A DNA stretch of 11,660 nucleotides. Source: Zymomonas sp. (GTDB taxonomy: Bacteria; Pseudomonadota; Alphaproteobacteria; Sphingomonadales; Sphingomonadaceae). This document shows, piece by piece, positions 2,354-8,969 of this stretch; position 1 is the first letter of the stretch; each line of letters opens with the position of its first letter. The stretch covers positions 1 to 11,660 of the forward strand of contig NZ_JAIWON010000032.1 of NCBI RefSeq assembly GCF_020216885.1, in the 5' to 3' direction. The notes below the pieces were generated by a model that was not told where the DNA came from, ran no database searches, and saw only the letters and a program-made list of their open reading frames with translations. The translations under genes and the position numbers were made by a program.

Positions 2354-5300
2354 TTATGACTTCGTTTTTGGCTTCTCGGCGAGAGCCTTCTCTGCTTTTT
2401 CATCAGCCAGACGCTGTTTCTTTGCTTCGTGGAAAACTTTGTGATTGGGAGGCATGCGAGGAGGCAATCCTGTCCATCCCCCGCCGAGAGCCTGAATCAG
2501 CGAAACCGCTGCTGTTTGACGAGCAAGTTGCGTTTGCATCAGACTGCGCTTGGCGGACAGAGCCGAGGTTTCAACAGTAACTACATCAGTATAGGCGACT
2601 AATCCGACCTGATAACGCTTTAATATTGCCTGCTCGCTCCGATCGGCATTCTTAAAGGCGTCATTGAGATGTGTTTCTTGATTGCCATATATCTGCGTCG
2701 CAGCGATTTCATCTGCTACATTTTGATAGGCCTGCAAAACGATTTGCCGATAGTTGGCAACTGCTTGGGAATAGGCAGCACGTGCCTGATGCAATTGCGA
2801 TAGATGTGATCCCCAGTCGAGAACAGTGAAGGCCATTGAGGCACCGACAGACCAGATGCTGGAAGATTGTGCCAAAAGCCGCGTAATGTCGCCAGCTGTA
2901 TCACCCGCATAAGGTGACATGCTGAAGCTAGGATAGAAAGCGGCTTTCCTGACTCCGATAGTCGCAGAAGCTGCTTCTATCTTGCGTTCTGCGGAAGCAA
3001 TATCTGGTCGTCTCTGCAACAAAGTAGAAGGCAGATCTAAAGGCACGTCGGGAACAATGGGACTCCAGTCATTCCTTGGCTCGATATGAAAATCACCAGC
3101 CGGAATACCGACATAGACAGAAATGGCATCTTCATAGGTGCGTCGATTCTGTCTTAGACTTTCGATCTGAGAACGCGTATTTGATAGCTGTGTTTCTGCT
3201 TGGAATACGTCACTTTCAGGCGCAATGTCTGCATTGAAACGATTTCGAGCTACTTCCAAGGCATGCGTATAAGCGGCAATGGTTTGCTCCATGACTGCAA
3301 TTTCAGCATCGGCTTCTCGTAATTGCAAATAGCTGCTGGCAACACCGGCATGGAGAGCTAACCTTGCAGTTTCAATATCAGCCATATTGGCTTCAGCGGT
3401 TGCCTTTGAATTTTCGATCTGCCGCCGCACACCACCAAAGAAATCTGGTGTCCAGCTCATAGAGAGACCGGCGCGGTAGTTATCGCTGATATTGCTTCTA
3501 CTGACCGTTGAGGAGCCACCGCCCGCAGTGTTGACGACTTCGCTGCCGCCACCGGTTACCGTGTGCTGGTTTGAGGCGCTAAGACTGATAGTCGGCCACA
3601 TGGATGAACGGTTCTGCCCCATGACAGCTAAGGCGTTACGCCATGTCGCTTCGGCTTGGGCGACGCTTTGGCTGGCGACGTCAGAGCGTTCGATCAGCTT
3701 GTTTAATTCGGGGTCGTTAAATAATTCCCACCAGCGATCTTTAATCTGGCGATCCATAGGCTGGGCTTCTTGCCAGCTGATTTTTTGACCGTTGGGCGTA
3801 ATCTGATCGGGGGGAAGTGGCGGAGTGTTTTCAGTGGCAGATTTCTTTTGATCGGATTTTGCGTCAGCCGATTTTTTGGGGTCGGAGGCTGCCTTGCCAG
3901 AAGATAATGTCGCACCGGTAGCGCCCCTATTTCCGGCGATATTTGTTACCTTGTTGTTATCGGCACCGCTATATTGATGCGGTGTTGGAGCCGAGGGGCG
4001 AACATAGTTGGGCCCAACTTCGCAGCCTGCCAAAACCAAAGCAAGAGGCGGTAAAAGGAAAAGCGCTTTAACGGATTTTCTAATTTTGCAGGATAAAAGG
4101 AAAAAGTCTTTAGTGCTTTTTTTGACTTCAGATGATGAAAAGGAAAAAGCCTTAGCCTTTTTTCGCAGTTCGGATGATGAAGCAGGAATAACTTTAGTCG
4201 TTTTTCCAAATTCAGAAGATGAAAGAGAATAACTAGTAGCGACTTTTTCAACTTTCATTGGTGAAGACGGCGTGGCGTTGGTAGCCTTCACAACCTTGGG
4301 CGAGGAAGAGGAAAAAATGGCGGCCTTTTCAGCTTCGAGCTGAGAAACAGGCGTAGCGTTAGTAGCTGCCCTAACCTCGGGAGAAGAAAGAGAAAAAGTT
4401 ATGACAGCTTTTTCTTCGAGTGATGAAGACAGCGTAATGTTGGTGGCGTGTCCGACTTCAGGCGAGGAAGAAGAAAGACCTTCAGCGGCTGTTCCGACAT
4501 CCGATGGCGAAAGAGAAAAGCTTTTGGTCGTTTTTTCTATGGCTTTGGCTGTTTTTCTAACTTTAGACAGGCAAAAAAATGAGGTCTTCACGGTATTTTC
4601 AACTTTGGACGAGAGAAGAAAAGAAGATTTTGCGGTATTTTCAACTTTGGATGAGGGAAAAGAAGAAGATTTCGCGGTATTGCCAGCTTTGGATGAGGGA
4701 AGAGAGGCAGACTTCTCAATATTTTCAACTTCCGATAAGGAAAGGGAGAACGCCTTGACTGTGTTTTCAGCATTAGAGGGTAAAAGAGAAAAGGCCTTCA
4801 TGCTATTTCCAATTTGGGGCTGGCCGGAGATTTCGAGCGTATACGGCGTAGGGATTCCAGTCTGGGAGTGAGAGGCGGTAAGGGTCGAAGCCTTTACAAG
4901 ATGATGTAATCGGCAAGAATGAGGCCGCTTAATGTCGGATTTTGACAGAGGGAAAGTCATCATAGATTTTTCAAATTGAGCGCGCTGCAAAATTTCAGCA
5001 TGAGGCAGCAAAACTGCGGCAACCTGTTCATCTTCTTCAGATTGGCGCTGGCTCGATATTCTGTCTTGGAGATCAAGAAGAGGTGCTGACAAATAAACCT
5101 TGATGGAGATTGTCGGTTGGAGAGCAATGCCCTTTCCTAATCCCGCGATATTCGAAGGCGTAAGGCAAGAAGCCTTTCTATATTCTGTGTGAGTGGATTG
5201 AGATATATCGAGCCTTTCTTGGAAGGTCGATATATCGGTTCCCTTGGGAGTGATGACAGCCCCTGCCCGTATAGAGCTTTTTGATTGGATAAAATCAGCC

Positions 5301-5548
5301 AGAAAAGAATAAGGTTTCATAGCTGTTCCAGATTGAAAAAGCCCTTCGGTTCCAATGTCGGAATAGCCGATCAGGCGGTCAAAATCGCTTGTAACAGGGG
5401 TAAAACTGCCTTTATTTTTTTTATATAGGCCGTTCTCTGGATGGATGATTTTGGTCGAGACCATCGCCATAATAGGCGACATAGGAAAAAGGCCGGAGAA
5501 GGCGAAAAGAGCCGTTTCGGAGGTCTTTTTTTTCATCTTTTTCCCCAT
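2354..5548 (-). CDS. NodT-family RND outer-membrane channel lipoprotein with a giant repeat-bearing N-terminal extension
   Basis: Residues ~509-1064 are a complete outer-membrane factor of the NodT/OprM/TolC type, the exit duct of tripartite efflux pumps. Visible marks are lipobox LAGC (Cys509), EVGPNYVRP, WWELFNDPELNKLI, the helical repeats (GVASSYLQLREADAE, FNADIAPESDVFQAE), LLQRRPDIASAERKI and RYQVGLVAYTDVV. The mature part (556 residues) has near-normal family length, enlarged by a Lys/Ser/Ala-rich linker (~528-587) and a Lys-rich tail (~1036-1064). What is odd is the 508 residues before the lipobox: an unrecognised region (1-251) and a 14-residue tandem array (252-494). The frame opens with ATG at 5548. 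ATG at 5536 is better supported because GGGGA lies 5 nt upstream and it overlaps a small frame by ATGA. No ATG/GTG/TTG lies at a normal distance before the lipobox; the nearest ATG is Met431. Frame and family are certain, true start is not. Confidence 0.86.
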   Translation of the reverse strand: MGKKMKKKTSETALFAFSGLFPMSPIMAMVSTKIIHPENGLYKKNKGSFTPVTSDFDRLIGYSDIGTEGLFQSGTAMKPYSFLADFIQSKSSIRAGAVITPKGTDISTFQERLDISQSTHTEYRKASCLTPSNIAGLGKGIALQPTISIKVYLSAPLLDLQDRISSQRQSEEDEQVAAVLLPHAEILQRAQFEKSMMTFPLSKSDIKRPHSCRLHHLVKASTLTASHSQTGIPTPYTLEISGQPQIGNSMKAFSLLPSNAENTVKAFSLSLSEVENIEKSASLPSSKAGNTAKSSSFPSSKVENTAKSSFLLSSKVENTVKTSFFCLSKVRKTAKAIEKTTKSFSLSPSDVGTAAEGLSSSSPEVGHATNITLSSSLEEKAVITFSLSSPEVRAATNATPVSQLEAEKAAIFSSSSPKVVKATNATPSSPMKVEKVATSYSLSSSEFGKTTKVIPASSSELRKKAKAFSFSSSEVKKSTKDFFLLSCKIRKSVKALFLLPPLALVLAGCEVGPNYVRPSAPTPHQYSGADNNKVTNIAGNRGATGATLSSGKAASDPKKSADAKSDQKKSATENTPPLPPDQITPNGQKISWQEAQPMDRQIKDRWWELFNDPELNKLIERSDVASQSVAQAEATWRNALAVMGQNRSSMWPTISLSASNQHTVTGGGSEVVNTAGGGSSTVSRSNISDNYRAGLSMSWTPDFFGGVRRQIENSKATAEANMADIETARLALHAGVASSYLQLREADAEIAVMEQTIAAYTHALEVARNRFNADIAPESDVFQAETQLSNTRSQIESLRQNRRTYEDAISVYVGIPAGDFHIEPRNDWSPIVPDVPLDLPSTLLQRRPDIASAERKIEAASATIGVRKAAFYPSFSMSPYAGDTAGDITRLLAQSSSIWSVGASMAFTVLDWGSHLSQLHQARAAYSQAVANYRQIVLQAYQNVADEIAATQIYGNQETHLNDAFKNADRSEQAILKRYQVGLVAYTDVVTVETSALSAKRSLMQTQLARQTAAVSLIQALGGGWTGLPPRMPPNHKVFHEAKKQRLADEKAEKALAEKPKTKS
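4022..4084 (-). other. Lipoprotein signal peptide and lipobox inside the channel protein
   Basis: Residues 489-509 read I-R-K-S-V-K followed by ALFLLPPLALVLAGC: a basic n-region, a hydrophobic h-region and a textbook lipobox (L-A-G-C) with Cys509 as the predicted lipidated residue, followed by the usual EVGPNYVRP of NodT lipoproteins. In an ordinary family member the start Met would sit where Ile489 (codon ATT) is. Here it is preceded by ~490 in-frame codons. Confidence 0.85.
4067..4795 (-). repeat. Tandem 42-nt (14-codon) repeat array in the channel gene
   Basis: Residues 252-494 consist of about 17 units with rough consensus A-F-S-L-S-S-S-E-V-E-N-T-x-K. Units begin at residues 252, 266, 280, 294, 308, 322, (336, half unit), 343, 357, 371, 384, 398, 412, 425, 439, 453, 467 and 481, and the array then enters the signal peptide at 495. 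The best-conserved block is 4544-4795 (six units of exactly 42 nt). There the unit at 4586-4627 matches that at 4628-4669 at about 35 of 42 positions, as does the next pair. Identity falls toward the lipobox. Length exceptions are 7- and 13-residue units, all multiples of 3 nt. Confidence 0.9.
4151..4480 (-). repeat. Higher-order 27-28-codon dimer repeat within the array
   Basis: Residues 357-466 alternate two unit types, giving a period of 27-28 residues (81-84 nt). The anchor positions are Pro363, Pro390, Pro417 and Ser445, each inside an S-S-P/S-x-V/F-x-x-x-T-N/K segment (PEVGHATN, PEVRAATN, PKVVKATN, SEFGKTTK). Dimers appear to have been amplified as blocks after the monomer unit existed. 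Confidence 0.65.
5533..5546 (-). promoter_or_regulatory. Candidate ribosome binding site and ATGA overlap at the channel gene's second ATG
   Basis: On the minus strand GGGGA (5546-5542) stands 5 nt before ATG at 5536-5534. That ATG shares ATGA with the TGA (5535-5533) of the 45-codon frame upstream. No purine-rich Shine-Dalgarno site stands before the ATG at 5548, so 5536 is the more likely start. Confidence 0.4.
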
Positions 5549-5670
5549 GCTGAATAGGTCTGATTGACCGGATTCATTTCTAAAAAGAAAAAAGCCGTCA
5601 GGGGGTTACCCATATTGTCATCGCCTGACTTCTGATGAGGAAGGATAGCGGGCAATAGAAGAAAAGCCAT
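5533..5670 (-). CDS. Possible 45-residue small protein or signal-peptide remnant between the mdtC-like and channel genes
   Basis: A frame of 45 codons begins with an ATG sharing one base with the mdtC-like stop (TGATG) and ends in a TGA overlapping the ATG at 5536 of the channel gene (ATGA). Both junctions have the form typical of translationally coupled operon genes. The product starts MAFLLLPAILP and ends WGKR, with a second hydrophobic patch (TAFFFLEM) and no known domain. Its first residues resemble both the channel's signal peptide (ALFLLPPLALV) and the first repeat unit (AFSLLPSN). It could be a coupling leader peptide, a remnant of the channel gene's original start, or chance: 45 open codons is not rare. 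A candidate terminator overlaps it. Confidence 0.3.
   Translation of the reverse strand: MAFLLLPAILPHQKSGDDNMGNPLTAFFFLEMNPVNQTYSAWGKR
5582..5629 (-). terminator. Candidate intra-operon terminator or attenuator between the mdtC-like and channel genes
   Basis: Read on the minus strand, GTCAGG (5629-5624) can pair with CCTGAC (5602-5597) across a 21-nt loop. GGC and then a T-rich run (six T, C, five T) follow at 5596-5582. The stem is short and the loop long, so termination may be partial, lowering channel expression relative to the pump. The T-run also encodes Phe/Leu codons of the small overlapping frame. Confidence 0.45.
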
Positions 5671-8600
5671 CATGCTTTCTCCAACCTATTTTCAGCCTTG
5701 GCCTTCCGCCGCCAAGGCCGCCAGCGAGATAAGCGGTCAAAATAGATATAGATGACTGGAGTTGTGAACAGCGTTAACATCTGGCTGACGACCAAACCAC
5801 CGATAATCGTAACACCCAGAGGTTGACGAAATTCAGAACCTTCACCGAAACCGATAGCCAAAGGCACAACGCCTAGAGCCGCCGCCAAAGTTGTCATAAT
5901 GATAGGGCGGAAACGCAAAATGCAAGATTGCCGCATGGCCTCTTCCGCAGACAATCCCTGCTCCCTTTGGAGATGCAAGGCCACATCAATAACCAAAATA
6001 GCATTCTTTTTGACGATGCCCATCAACAGGAAAACCCCGATCAAAGCAATGACGGAGAAATCCATATGAATGAGCATGAGAGCTAAAACAGCCCCTACCC
6101 CCGCCGCCGGTAAAGTAGAGATCACCGTAATCGGATGGATCAGATTTTCGTAAAGAATACCCAAAACAATATAGATGGTTATCAGCGCAGCCAAAAGGAG
6201 CAAGGCTTGGCTGCCACTGTCATTGCCTAATTTAGCCGTTCCGGCAAAATTACCCCGAATATTGGCAGGCACCATCAATTGCGCCATTTTTGCTTTAATT
6301 TCGCTTTGCGCTTCATTGAGATTATGGCCGCTTTTCAAGTTGAAAGAAATAGTGGCAGCGGCCTCGCCATTATCATGCTGGATAGATAAGTCAGTCGCAT
6401 GAAGCGAGAATTTCGCAATGGCAGGCAATGGCACCATTGTGCTGGCCGAGGTGTTCAATGCGCTACCTGTCGAGGGATCACGCAAAGACGGATTAGCCGA
6501 ATTAGCATCACCGCTATTCCCGCTGCCCGTAGAATTGACGGAAAGAGCCGAAGAGTCATTGGCAACTGAAGTCGCCCCTGCAGCATTGGTTCCCGTTCCG
6601 GCAATAGCCGTGGTATTGGTGCTGGAGGCGGAATTGGTTGAACTATTCGCCGGAATATAAAGATTTTGCAGTGCTTGGGGCCCTTGTTGATCCTTCGGCG
6701 CCCATTCGAAAACAACCGGATATTGATTGATATCTTCGTAAATCGTCGCAATTTGGCGCTGACCAAAGCTGTCATAAAGGGCGTTATCGACGTTACGCGC
6801 ACTGATGCCGAGGCGGCTGGCGCTGTCACGGTCAATACTGACCATCGATTCAATACCATTCAGCGATAAATCATTATCGACATCCGTCAGGATATCAGAA
6901 GTTTGCAAGGCTTGCGTCAGTTTCGGCACCCAATCTTGGAGCGCTTTACTGTCGTCAGAAATGAGCGTGTATTGATAGGTAGAATCCGAAGAGCGCGCCC
7001 CCATCCGCAAATCCTGCATTGGAGACAGAAAAACCGAAATTCCGGTAAGCTGTGCCAATTTAGGGCGCAGACGGTTAATGACGACGGTCGCTTTTTCCTT
7101 TCTTTCACCCCATGGTTTCAGTTCAACCATCAAAAAGGCGCTACCTGAGCGTTTGCCGCCGGTAAAACCGATAACCGTTGAAACCTGCTTTTCTTGCCGC
7201 AAGATATTGACCGTTTGCGTCAGTTTCTTTTCCATTGTCTGGAAAGAAGAAGAGCGGTCAGCCCGCACCCCAGCCATTAGGATGGGTGAATCCTGTTGCG
7301 GAAAAAAGCTTTTGGGGACAACCGCGTAAAGATAAACTGTCAGCACCAAGACCAGCAAAAAAAGCACCAGCATCAAAGGCTTCATCGATAATGCCCAGTT
7401 CAAGGCATAGCTGTAGGCTTTTTCGACATAAGCAAATGATTTTTCAAAGAAATGAGCAATGCGTCCCTGTTTTTTATCTTCTTTGCGCGGGGAAAGCATC
7501 CATGCGCACATCATCGGTGTCGTCGTCAATGAAATGACCATCGAGATCAGCACAGCAGCCGAAAGGCTGACTGCAAATTCGCGGAAAAGCCGTCCCCCAA
7601 TGCCCCCCAAAAAGAGCAATGGAATAAAGACCGCGACCAAAGACAGGCTGATCGACAAAACAGTAAAACCGACTTCTTGCGCCCCAAGCAAGGCGGCTTC
7701 CATGCGTCCCATGCCATTTTCAAGATGGCGAGCGATATTTTCCAGCACCACGATAGCATCATCAATGACAAAGCCGGTGGCGACAATAATCGCCATCATT
7801 GAGAGATTGTTGAGCGAGAAGCCCGCAAAATACATCACCGCAAAAGTGCCGAGCAGAGAGACCGAGGCCGCAACCGCCGGAATGACAACCGCGCTAAGAT
7901 TGCGAAGGAAAACACCGACGACCGCAATGACCAAAACCAGTGAAATAATCAGCGTGAGCCGCACTTCATTTAAAGTCGAGCGGATAGAACTGGTGCGATC
8001 ATTGGCAACCGTCACATGAACATCCGAAGGCAGCATTTTTTCAAGATGCGGTAATTCCGCCCGAAGTGAATCGACCAGATTGATAAGATTGGCACCCGGT
8101 TGTTGGGTAATCAGCACGATAACCGCAGGATGACCGTTGAAAAGACCAAGATTACGGGTATCGGCGACCCCATCGGTCACAGAGGCGATGTCTTTTAACC
8201 GGATCGCCGTTGTGCCGTTGCGCCATGCCACCACCAGATCACCATAAAGTTTGGCATCGCGCCCCAGTTGATTGGTGTAAATCTGGTAATGATGACCGTC
8301 AGGGCTTTCCAAGGCACCTTTGGGGCGGTTGGCATTCGCACTTTCAATCGTGGCGCGGACATCTTCGAGGCTAAGCCCGAAGCGACTAAGCGCATAAGGG
8401 GAGACATCAATTCGCACGCCCGGCAAGGAGCCGCCGCCAATTTCGACCTCACCCACGCCGGAGACCTGTGACAATCTTTGTGAAACAAGATTGGAAACGG
8501 TTTCGTAAATTTGCCCCGGTGTTTTGCTGTCCGAGGTCAAGGCCAAAACCATGACCGGCATCATCGAAGGGTTTACTTTGAGATAGCTGGGATTGCTTTG

Positions 8601-8969
8601 CAGTGTTGACGGCAAATCAGCACGGGCAGCACTGATGGCCGCCTGCACTTCTCTTGCCGCGCCATTGATGTCGCGATCAAGGCCAAATTCCAAAGCGATC
8701 TGGGTTGATCCGACCGAACTGCTGGAAGTCATTTCGGTGACATCCGCAATGACCCCCAAGCGCCTTTCCAAAGGCTGGGCAATACTGTTGGCCATAGTAT
8801 TGGGGCTGGCACCGGCCATGCTGGCTTGCACCACGATTACGGGAAAATCAATCTGCGGTAACGGCGCGACCGGTAGTTTGAAATAGGCAATAATACCGGC
8901 CAGCGCGATTCCGATGGTCAGAAGGGTTGTCCCGATCGGGCGTGAGATAAAAGGTCGCGACAGATTCAC
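5670..8969 (-). CDS. mdtC: RND multidrug efflux pump subunit, MdtC-like
   Basis: This 1099-residue inner-membrane pump of the HAE-1 RND family would use proton import to extrude drugs or toxic metabolites from periplasm and membrane. It has the full layout: TM1 at the N-terminus (PIGTTLLTIGIALAGII), periplasmic porter half, TM2-7, second porter half and TM8-12. Proton-relay residues are present: Asp403-Asp404 in VIDDAIVVLEN, Lys988 in GIVKKNAI, and Arg1021 in LRFRPIIMTT. MdtC-type segments include LPVAPLPQIDFPVIVV, DRDINGAAREVQAAI, GGGSLPGVRIDV and ADRSSSFQTM. E. coli MdtC is 1025 residues; the excess is mostly a Ser/Asn/Thr-rich insert (~775-845). The start is GTG at 8969, sharing GTGA with the upstream pump's stop, with GAGG 10 nt upstream. 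The symbol is by resemblance. Confidence 0.95.
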   Translation of the reverse strand: MNLSRPFISRPIGTTLLTIGIALAGIIAYFKLPVAPLPQIDFPVIVVQASMAGASPNTMANSIAQPLERRLGVIADVTEMTSSSSVGSTQIALEFGLDRDINGAAREVQAAISAARADLPSTLQSNPSYLKVNPSMMPVMVLALTSDSKTPGQIYETVSNLVSQRLSQVSGVGEVEIGGGSLPGVRIDVSPYALSRFGLSLEDVRATIESANANRPKGALESPDGHHYQIYTNQLGRDAKLYGDLVVAWRNGTTAIRLKDIASVTDGVADTRNLGLFNGHPAVIVLITQQPGANLINLVDSLRAELPHLEKMLPSDVHVTVANDRTSSIRSTLNEVRLTLIISLVLVIAVVGVFLRNLSAVVIPAVAASVSLLGTFAVMYFAGFSLNNLSMMAIIVATGFVIDDAIVVLENIARHLENGMGRMEAALLGAQEVGFTVLSISLSLVAVFIPLLFLGGIGGRLFREFAVSLSAAVLISMVISLTTTPMMCAWMLSPRKEDKKQGRIAHFFEKSFAYVEKAYSYALNWALSMKPLMLVLFLLVLVLTVYLYAVVPKSFFPQQDSPILMAGVRADRSSSFQTMEKKLTQTVNILRQEKQVSTVIGFTGGKRSGSAFLMVELKPWGERKEKATVVINRLRPKLAQLTGISVFLSPMQDLRMGARSSDSTYQYTLISDDSKALQDWVPKLTQALQTSDILTDVDNDLSLNGIESMVSIDRDSASRLGISARNVDNALYDSFGQRQIATIYEDINQYPVVFEWAPKDQQGPQALQNLYIPANSSTNSASSTNTTAIAGTGTNAAGATSVANDSSALSVNSTGSGNSGDANSANPSLRDPSTGSALNTSASTMVPLPAIAKFSLHATDLSIQHDNGEAAATISFNLKSGHNLNEAQSEIKAKMAQLMVPANIRGNFAGTAKLGNDSGSQALLLLAALITIYIVLGILYENLIHPITVISTLPAAGVGAVLALMLIHMDFSVIALIGVFLLMGIVKKNAILVIDVALHLQREQGLSAEEAMRQSCILRFRPIIMTTLAAALGVVPLAIGFGEGSEFRQPLGVTIIGGLVVSQMLTLFTTPVIYIYFDRLSRWRPWRRKAKAENRLEKA
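6435..6647 (-). other. Low-complexity Ser/Asn/Thr/Ala/Gly insert in the MdtC-like pump
   Basis: Residues ~775-845 replace what in E. coli MdtC is a short turn between a LYV/I-type strand and the following MVPL strand. Here LQNLYIPANS and TMVPLPAIAKF flank about 68 residues rich in Ser, Asn, Thr, Ala and Gly with no hydrophobic stretch. It is probably a disordered periplasmic loop. In AcrB the equivalent hairpin lies near residue 815-825, close to the funnel/docking part; this placement is from memory of the fold. Confidence 0.65.

What the first reader, a model, noticed from the sequence alone, without database searches (positions are those of the whole stretch)
4067..4795. A 14-residue tandem repeat array leads straight into the lipoprotein signal peptide of an efflux channel
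The sequence shows ~17 units of 42 nt in phase with the reading frame, six of them exactly 42 nt and neighbouring pairs about 83% identical, ending at the signal peptide. The last unit (D-F-F-L-L-S-C-K-I-R-K-S-V-K) is itself the signal's n-region, so the unit probably arose by duplication of signal-peptide-coding DNA. NodT-family proteins normally start about 20 residues before the lipobox. I know of no described outer-membrane factor with such an array.
Basis: partly seen in the sequence, partly recalled or inferred. Interest (0 to 1): 0.75.

Follow-up and report, generated by a model that had tools for sequence, protein, structure and literature searches.

The report
Repeat-grown N-terminus buries lipoprotein signal
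In Zymomonas mobilis the gene for an efflux-pump outer-membrane channel has grown a long, strain-variable run of 14-residue repeats in front of its export signal, apparently from copies of its own start region, so that a signal that sits at the very start of its nearest relatives lies hundreds of residues inside it.

Summary
The array is real, in frame and not an assembly product. It belongs to the outer-membrane-factor gene (NodT family) of an MdtABC-like operon in Zymomonas. Two other Zymomonas genomes lack it: there the gene starts 16 codons before the lipobox Cys, at an ATG overlapping the pump's stop. In the window that start (5673) now opens a 46-codon leader frame, and the channel's own ATG has become GTT. 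Between them lie 508 open codons with about 18 units. The ancestral 42-nt start stretch matches three places best: the first unit (4807, 30/42), the signal (4078, 30/42) and the old start (26/42). Seventeen further proteins (12 named, all Z. mobilis) carry the array; in one subtype length varies in steps of 14 residues. The extension shows weak, frame-specific amino-acid constraint; the buried signal and mature channel are tightly conserved. Most likely the precursor carries an oversized, disordered n-region that signal peptidase II removes. The repeats' function, the translation start and the cleavage are inferred, not shown. I found no description in the papers searched.

The parts
2354..5548 (-). 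Open reading frame of the outer-membrane factor with its extension (1064 codons; the database entry P0001 starts 4 codons later, at 5536)
   Evidence: PF02321 twice, TIGR01845 outer_NodT 359.5 bits at residues 600-1024, cut-off 210; P0001 = 1060 aa
5533..5673 (-). Leader frame of 46 codons that begins at the ancestral channel start ATG (overlapping the pump's stop) and ends in a TGA that overlaps the ATG at 5536
   Evidence: same layout, unlike sequence, in G001 (52 codons)
4808..5548 (-). First part of the extension, not in clear repeats, open frame; its first ~600 nt have no convincing DNA match in G001 (protein match from residue 169)
4928..4969 (-). Degenerate unit KSMMTFPLSKSDIK
   Evidence: Score 5.4 with the unit matrix; background peaks in array-free loci reach 4.3 and 9.7, so this one is uncertain
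4766..4807 (-). First clear unit, AATAGC-ATG-AAGGCC..., 30/42 to the ancestral start of array-free Zymomonas; carries an in-frame ATG at 4801
   Evidence: whole-genome blastn best hit in array-free G002 is the channel start itself, 86% over 35 nt
4037..4807 (-). Tandem array of 14-residue units (18 units including the one that is the signal)
4022..4078 (-). Last unit and buried lipoprotein signal KSVKALFLLPPLALVLAGC; the ancestral ATG is GTT at 4072; Cys codon 4024-4022
   Evidence: 0 non-synonymous and 3 synonymous differences from G001 in the 18 codons before the Cys
2357..4024 (-). Mature outer-membrane factor, 556 codons from the Cys
   Evidence: dN/dS 0.04 against G001; model matches OprN, CusC and OprM
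5670..8969 (-). RND permease (MdtC-like) whose stop overlaps the ancestral channel start

Best explanation
In one Zymomonas lineage the translation-start region of the NodT-type outer-membrane factor was copied, and the DNA between the copies became a tandem array of 42-nt units, later changing in blocks of mostly 84 nt (supported by comparison with array-free sisters). The channel's own ATG was lost, so its translation now has to enter from upstream, through the array. The array therefore has to stay open, while its residues are only weakly constrained (seen in two genomes). The precursor carries roughly 260-490 mostly disordered residues ahead of the old lipoprotein signal. That signal, kept unchanged, inserts as an internal N-in segment; Lgt and signal peptidase II process the buried LAGC lipobox, so the mature channel is the ordinary one and the extension is cut off on the cytoplasmic side (inferred). 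Copy number drifts by slippage or unequal recombination (inferred).
For: Array-free state in G002 and G003 with the start overlapping the pump stop. Ancestral 42-mer of G002: 30/42 at 4807 and at 4078 and 26/42 at 5679, against a best of 25 in 200,354 background positions; G003 version 28, 30 and 27, background best also 25. Best whole-genome DNA hit of the extension in G002 is the channel start. Residue at the ancestral Met position is V in 18 of 18 array proteins, codon GTT in both genomes with DNA. The array proteins are one side of a branch with support 100/99 on a 27-row tree. In the 13 MKAFSS-type proteins that reach the first unit, the distance from it to the signal takes seven values, all differing by multiples of 14 residues. 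Frame-0 pN/pS 0.48 (Fisher p 0.0006) against 0.80 and 1.06 in the other two frames of the same three blocks; 0.28 (p 0.00014) from the first unit to SPSDV. Mature channel dN/dS 0.04; signal 0 of 3 differences non-synonymous. Buried signal is the most hydrophobic 15-residue stretch before the Cys in 19 of 19 array-bearing rows. Extension pLDDT 22-44. LspA and Lgt are encoded.
Against: No protein-level data: start site, export and cleavage are not shown. A matrix of middle units does not find the ancestral start above background in L032 or L033 (third place in L034). In G003 the whole-genome DNA search does not pick out the channel start, and G001's own 5' site matches the G002 start only at background level (23/42). 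Upstream of the first unit (codons 194-249) amino-acid constraint is not detectable (dN/dS 0.68), nor clear in the last units (0.75). P0017 and P0018 are annotated from an internal Met in the array, which could mean that the upstream frame is broken or unused there.
Confidence: 0.58

Rival explanations
1. Translation of the channel starts inside, just before the signal, at a non-canonical codon (the Ile codon ATT at 4084, giving IRKSVKALFLLPPLALVLAGC), so that the precursor is of ordinary length and the array is a translated or partly translated leader.
For: The 21 residues from Ile to Cys would make an ordinary lipoprotein signal; ATT stands at that place in both genomes with DNA, and Ile in all the array proteins listed. 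Z. mobilis ZM4 has many leaderless transcripts (119 of 2,675 start-site/gene pairs; passage of PMC7566282), so its initiation may be tolerant.
Against: No purine-rich stretch before the codon; ATT starts are very rare (recalled). The codon is the unit's usual Val/Ile position. The frame upstream is open and under frame-specific constraint. No standalone N-terminal fragment turned up among proteins of about 86-273 aa (shorter ones could not be seen).
Confidence: 0.17
2. The extension starts at the first unit's ATG (4801), a copy of the old start site, and everything before it is a leader region; the precursor still has a repeat n-region of about 245 residues.
For: GGAAATAGCATGAAGGCC resembles the ancestral GGAGAGAGCATGAAGGCC; NSMKA is kept in the 16 proteins that reach that far, the window's own included; constraint is visible only from there on.
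Against: The frame upstream is open in both genomes and in those 16 proteins, which needs an explanation if it is not translated into the channel.
Confidence: 0.12
3. The extension is a domain with a function of its own (binding, regulation or pump assembly) and its length is tuned by selection.
For: pN/pS below 1 in the first half of the array; present in every member of the array clade found.
Against: Predicted disordered; dN about 8 to 22 times that of the mature channel, depending on the block, at roughly similar dS; two N-terminal types and many lengths; array-free sisters keep the same gene order.
Confidence: 0.1
4. The array is an assembly product, or the gene is dead.
For: Draft assembly of 184 contigs.
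Against: Same kind of array on other, much longer contigs; mature dN/dS 0.04.
Confidence: 0.02

Closest known systems
NodT-type outer membrane factors (OprM, OprN, CusC, CmeC; TIGR01845)
   Same: Mature part: sequence family, fold match, lipobox Cys; operon with two RND permeases and, in G001, an HlyD-type adaptor gene
   Different: The signal does not stand at the N-terminus; about 500 residues precede the Cys instead of the 16 of the array-free Zymomonas proteins
Long signal sequences with extended n-regions (ESPR of autotransporters; PMC2805444 and PMC8151025 seen only as search listing with the start of the abstract)
   Same: Extra N-terminal residues in front of an otherwise ordinary signal
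   Different: Not lipoproteins; far shorter; no tandem repeats of the start region (recalled, not tested)
Intragenic minisatellites (VNTRs) in bacterial genes (recalled)
   Same: In-frame tandem units, copy number differs between strains
   Different: Here the array's ends descend from the gene's own start region, and it lies in a part predicted to be removed

Membership tests
NodT-type outer membrane factor (TIGR01845 / PF02321) | Sequence match above curated cut-off | tested here: met
   359.5 bits, cut-off 210.05; PF02321 144.3 bits, cut-off 22
NodT-type outer membrane factor (TIGR01845 / PF02321) | TolC-like fold | tested here: met
   Predicted model matches OprN, CusC and OprM, TM-score by target length 0.81-0.86 among the top chains of these three; prediction, not a solved structure
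NodT-type outer membrane factor (TIGR01845 / PF02321) | Lipobox Cys shortly after the start Met | tested here: not met
   Cys at residue 509 of the ORF (505 from the called start); 17 in three array-free relatives. If translation starts internally this would change
NodT-type outer membrane factor (TIGR01845 / PF02321) | Exports drugs with its RND pump | not testable with these tools
   No experiment
Intragenic VNTR | Tandem in-frame units | tested here: met
Intragenic VNTR | Copy number varies between strains | tested here: met
   Seven array lengths among 13 MKAFSS-type proteins
Extended signal peptide (ESPR-like) | Translated n-region cleaved with the signal | not testable with these tools
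   Inferred only
Extended signal peptide (ESPR-like) | Conserved ESPR sequence motif of autotransporters | not tested
   -

The most novel reading that the evidence does not exclude
A lipoprotein precursor whose cleaved n-region is 260-490 residues long and grows and shrinks between strains. The length of this disposable tail could set how and when the channel precursor meets the export machinery, and so the amount of channel made per pump, without touching the mature protein.
Probability: 0.15. Interest if true: 0.75.

Novelty: new variant of a known kind. Interest (0 to 1): 0.52.

Why it matters
It gives a natural series, from no array to long arrays in close relatives, for asking how far a lipoprotein signal can be moved from the N-terminus and still be used, and how a gene survives losing its own start codon. 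Z. mobilis is a tractable ethanol producer (recalled) with ribosome-profiling and proteomic data for strain ZM4 (PMC7566282, abstract and passages), so the test is direct. It also suggests that predictors looking only at the N-terminus could miss such lipoproteins (not tested).

Tried and rejected
Assembly artefact: rejected. Dead gene: rejected. RNA-level structure of the array: z -0.77 in G000 (5 of 20 shuffles as good) and -2.21 in G001 (1 of 20), not consistent. Paralogous arrays elsewhere in four Zymomonas genomes: none by protein (the only other matches are weak antisense ones inside the array itself) and no convincing DNA match outside the locus. Antisense frames over the extension hold 10 to 37 stops each against 0 in the sense frame; the longest antisense open stretch is 175 codons in G000 and 127 in G001, and I take the 156-aa ORF at 4401-4871 (+) as a by-product of the repeat. 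Leader-frame stop overlapping the extension's ATG in both genomes: tempting as conserved coupling, but 93 of 453 stop triplets on the window's minus strand (all three frames) are overlapped by an ATG in these ways, so two in two is weak evidence. Unit matrix from middle units against array-free operons: did not point to the channel start. Plasmid collection: no match. Locus tags: ZMO0778-ZMO0780 are called efflux proteins down-regulated in the ZM4 proteome (PMC6190654, passages), but I could not establish that they are this operon, so nothing rests on it. The NodT/efflux passages shown of PMC8631904, PMC4578398, PMC11989028 and PMC11186258 do not mention repeats; I read no more of these papers. 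Literature searches for the array; apart from the passages named I saw listings only; none of what I saw describes it.

Full report
What is there. The window is one contig of a draft genome (G000, 1.92 Mb, 184 contigs). I place it in Zymomonas because the named close relatives of the gene are all Z. mobilis. On the minus strand lie an MdtB-like RND permease (cut by the contig end), an MdtC-like permease and an outer-membrane factor of the NodT family; in G001 an HlyD-type adaptor gene precedes them. The channel is encoded by a 1064-codon frame in which the NodT family match begins at residue 600 and the lipobox Cys is residue 509.

The array. Units of 14 residues run from 4807 to the signal peptide. 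With breaks set by a unit matrix I count 18 including the unit that is the signal itself: 15 of 42 nt, two of 39 and one of 63. Autocorrelation peaks at 42 and 84. In the related genome G001 the array has a younger layer: units six apart (252 nt) are 88-100% identical in the first eight comparisons and 52-60% in the last three.

The ancestral state. Genomes G002 and G003 have the same gene order without any extension. The named strain AN0101 (L034) does not differ from G002 over 9,083 bases, so it is no third case; a third array-free protein is P0019. In these genomes the pump ends in GCATGA and the channel starts at the ATG inside it: MKAFFLLPPLALILAGC. In the window the same place (5673) still has GAAAGCATGATGGC, overlapping the pump's stop, but this ATG now opens a 46-codon frame that ends at 5533 in a TGA overlapping the ATG at 5536 of the extended channel frame. 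G001 has the same layout with a 52-codon frame of unlike sequence. I tested whether that overlap is remarkable: 93 of 453 stop triplets on the strand have such an overlap, so I do not lean on it.

Origin. The ancestral 42-nt start stretch was slid over the window and G001. In the window the best three places are 4807 (30/42), 4078 (30/42) and 5679 (26/42), all on the minus strand; the best of 200,354 positions in other fetched Zymomonas loci is 25. With the G003 version the three score 28, 30 and 27, background best again 25. In G001 the first unit and the signal are again the two best (28 and 27 with the G002 version; 26 and 29 with the G003 version), while its 5' site scores 23, within background, with the former and is not among the seven listed with the latter. 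Independently, a whole-genome blastn of the extension against array-free G002 gives the channel start itself as best hit (86% over 35 nt, E 8e-4); in G003 the best hit is elsewhere (29 nt, E 0.003) and the channel start is not listed. So both ends of the array very probably descend from the start region. The middle units do not show it: a matrix built from them does not find the ancestral start above background. The simplest history is copying of the start, amplification and divergence, with loss of the original ATG (GTT at 4072 in the window and GTT in G001; Val at that residue in 18 of 18 array proteins).

Spread. Searching the extension found 16 proteins including the window's own; searching the mature part added two that are annotated from a Met inside the array. 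No protein of another genus with such an extension was listed: of the 120 proteins shown (of 170 hits; only the best ~8000 candidates were scored), the 16 longer than 650 aa are all array forms (length limits of that search: about 317-1008 aa). On a tree of mature sequences (27 rows: 18 array, 3 array-free Zymomonas, 6 others) the array proteins form one side of a branch, support 100/99. There are two N-terminal types: MKKKTSE (window, P0002, P0003) and MKAFSS/MKACSS (P0004-P0016, 13 proteins). In the latter the distance from the first unit to the signal takes seven values, 162 to 330 residues, all differing by multiples of 14; five of the six values above the shortest differ from it by an even number of units. 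The MKKKTSE type (163, 201 and 245 residues) does not keep that step. A search for broken N-terminal fragments (query 156 aa, so candidates of about 86-273 aa) found none at E up to 1.

Is it translated? In three ungapped blocks shared by G000 and G001, pN/pS is 0.48 in the coding frame (Fisher p 0.0006) and 0.80 and 1.06 when the same blocks are read in the other two frames; from the first unit to SPSDV it is 0.28 (p 0.00014) against 0.88 and 2.13. Against this, codons 194-249 and 434-490 show little constraint (dN/dS 0.68 and 0.75), and the excess of third-position differences in the two larger blocks is small (16/16/23 and 4/4/7). The mature channel shows 11/8/97 and dN/dS 0.04; the 18 codons before the Cys have three synonymous and no non-synonymous difference. 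The frame has no stop in 508 codons. So the channel is very probably in use, its signal is protected, and the extension is read in frame with weak constraint. Only this one pair of genomes could be tested at the DNA level.

How it most likely works. The extension is predicted disordered (pLDDT 22-44 per block of ten up to the Cys) and the mature part folds like OprN, CusC and OprM. The buried signal is the most hydrophobic 15-residue stretch before the Cys in 19 of 19 array-bearing rows; a second candidate near the N-terminus of the window's protein (LFAFSGLFPMSPIMA, 1.51) has counterparts in P0002 and P0003 (1.29, 1.39) but not among the top three of the MKAFSS type, apart from weak ones (0.95, 0.67) in P0012 and P0016. 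Lgt and signal peptidase II genes are present. I infer that the signal inserts from inside the chain, the lipobox is processed, and the extension is cut off. None of this has been shown. The chief rival is initiation at a rare codon just before the signal; the next is initiation at the first unit's ATG.

Novelty and weight. Searches of the paper library gave no description of such an array in this gene, in Zymomonas or in outer-membrane factors; I saw listings and a few passages, and most subscription papers are not in that library. Each component is of a known kind (a VNTR, a NodT-type channel), but a lipoprotein signal displaced by the gene's own amplified start is, as far as I could find, new. 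It may well be functionally neutral, which holds the score near the middle.

Noticed in passing
6438-6650 (-): The MdtC-like permease has a Ser/Asn/Thr-rich low-complexity insert of about 71 residues (774-844), where its family match breaks in two; the same insert is in G001 (the other two genomes were not resolved).
   Followed up: partly
3809-3970 (-): Soon after the lipobox the mature channel has a Lys/Ser/Asp-rich low-complexity linker (residues 527-580) that differs between the Zymomonas proteins and has low model confidence.
   Followed up: no
5673-5533 (-) and L031:10591-10749: Leader frames of 46 and 52 codons between pump and channel, alike in layout but not in sequence.
   Followed up: partly
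P0017, P0018 (proteins, no DNA at hand): Array proteins annotated from a Met inside the array (MRKTA); either short annotation or a broken upstream frame.
   Followed up: partly
4944-5548 (-): About 600 nt at the start of the window's extension have no convincing DNA match in G001, though P0002 and P0003 share the protein: a second, subtype-specific stretch of unknown origin.
   Followed up: partly
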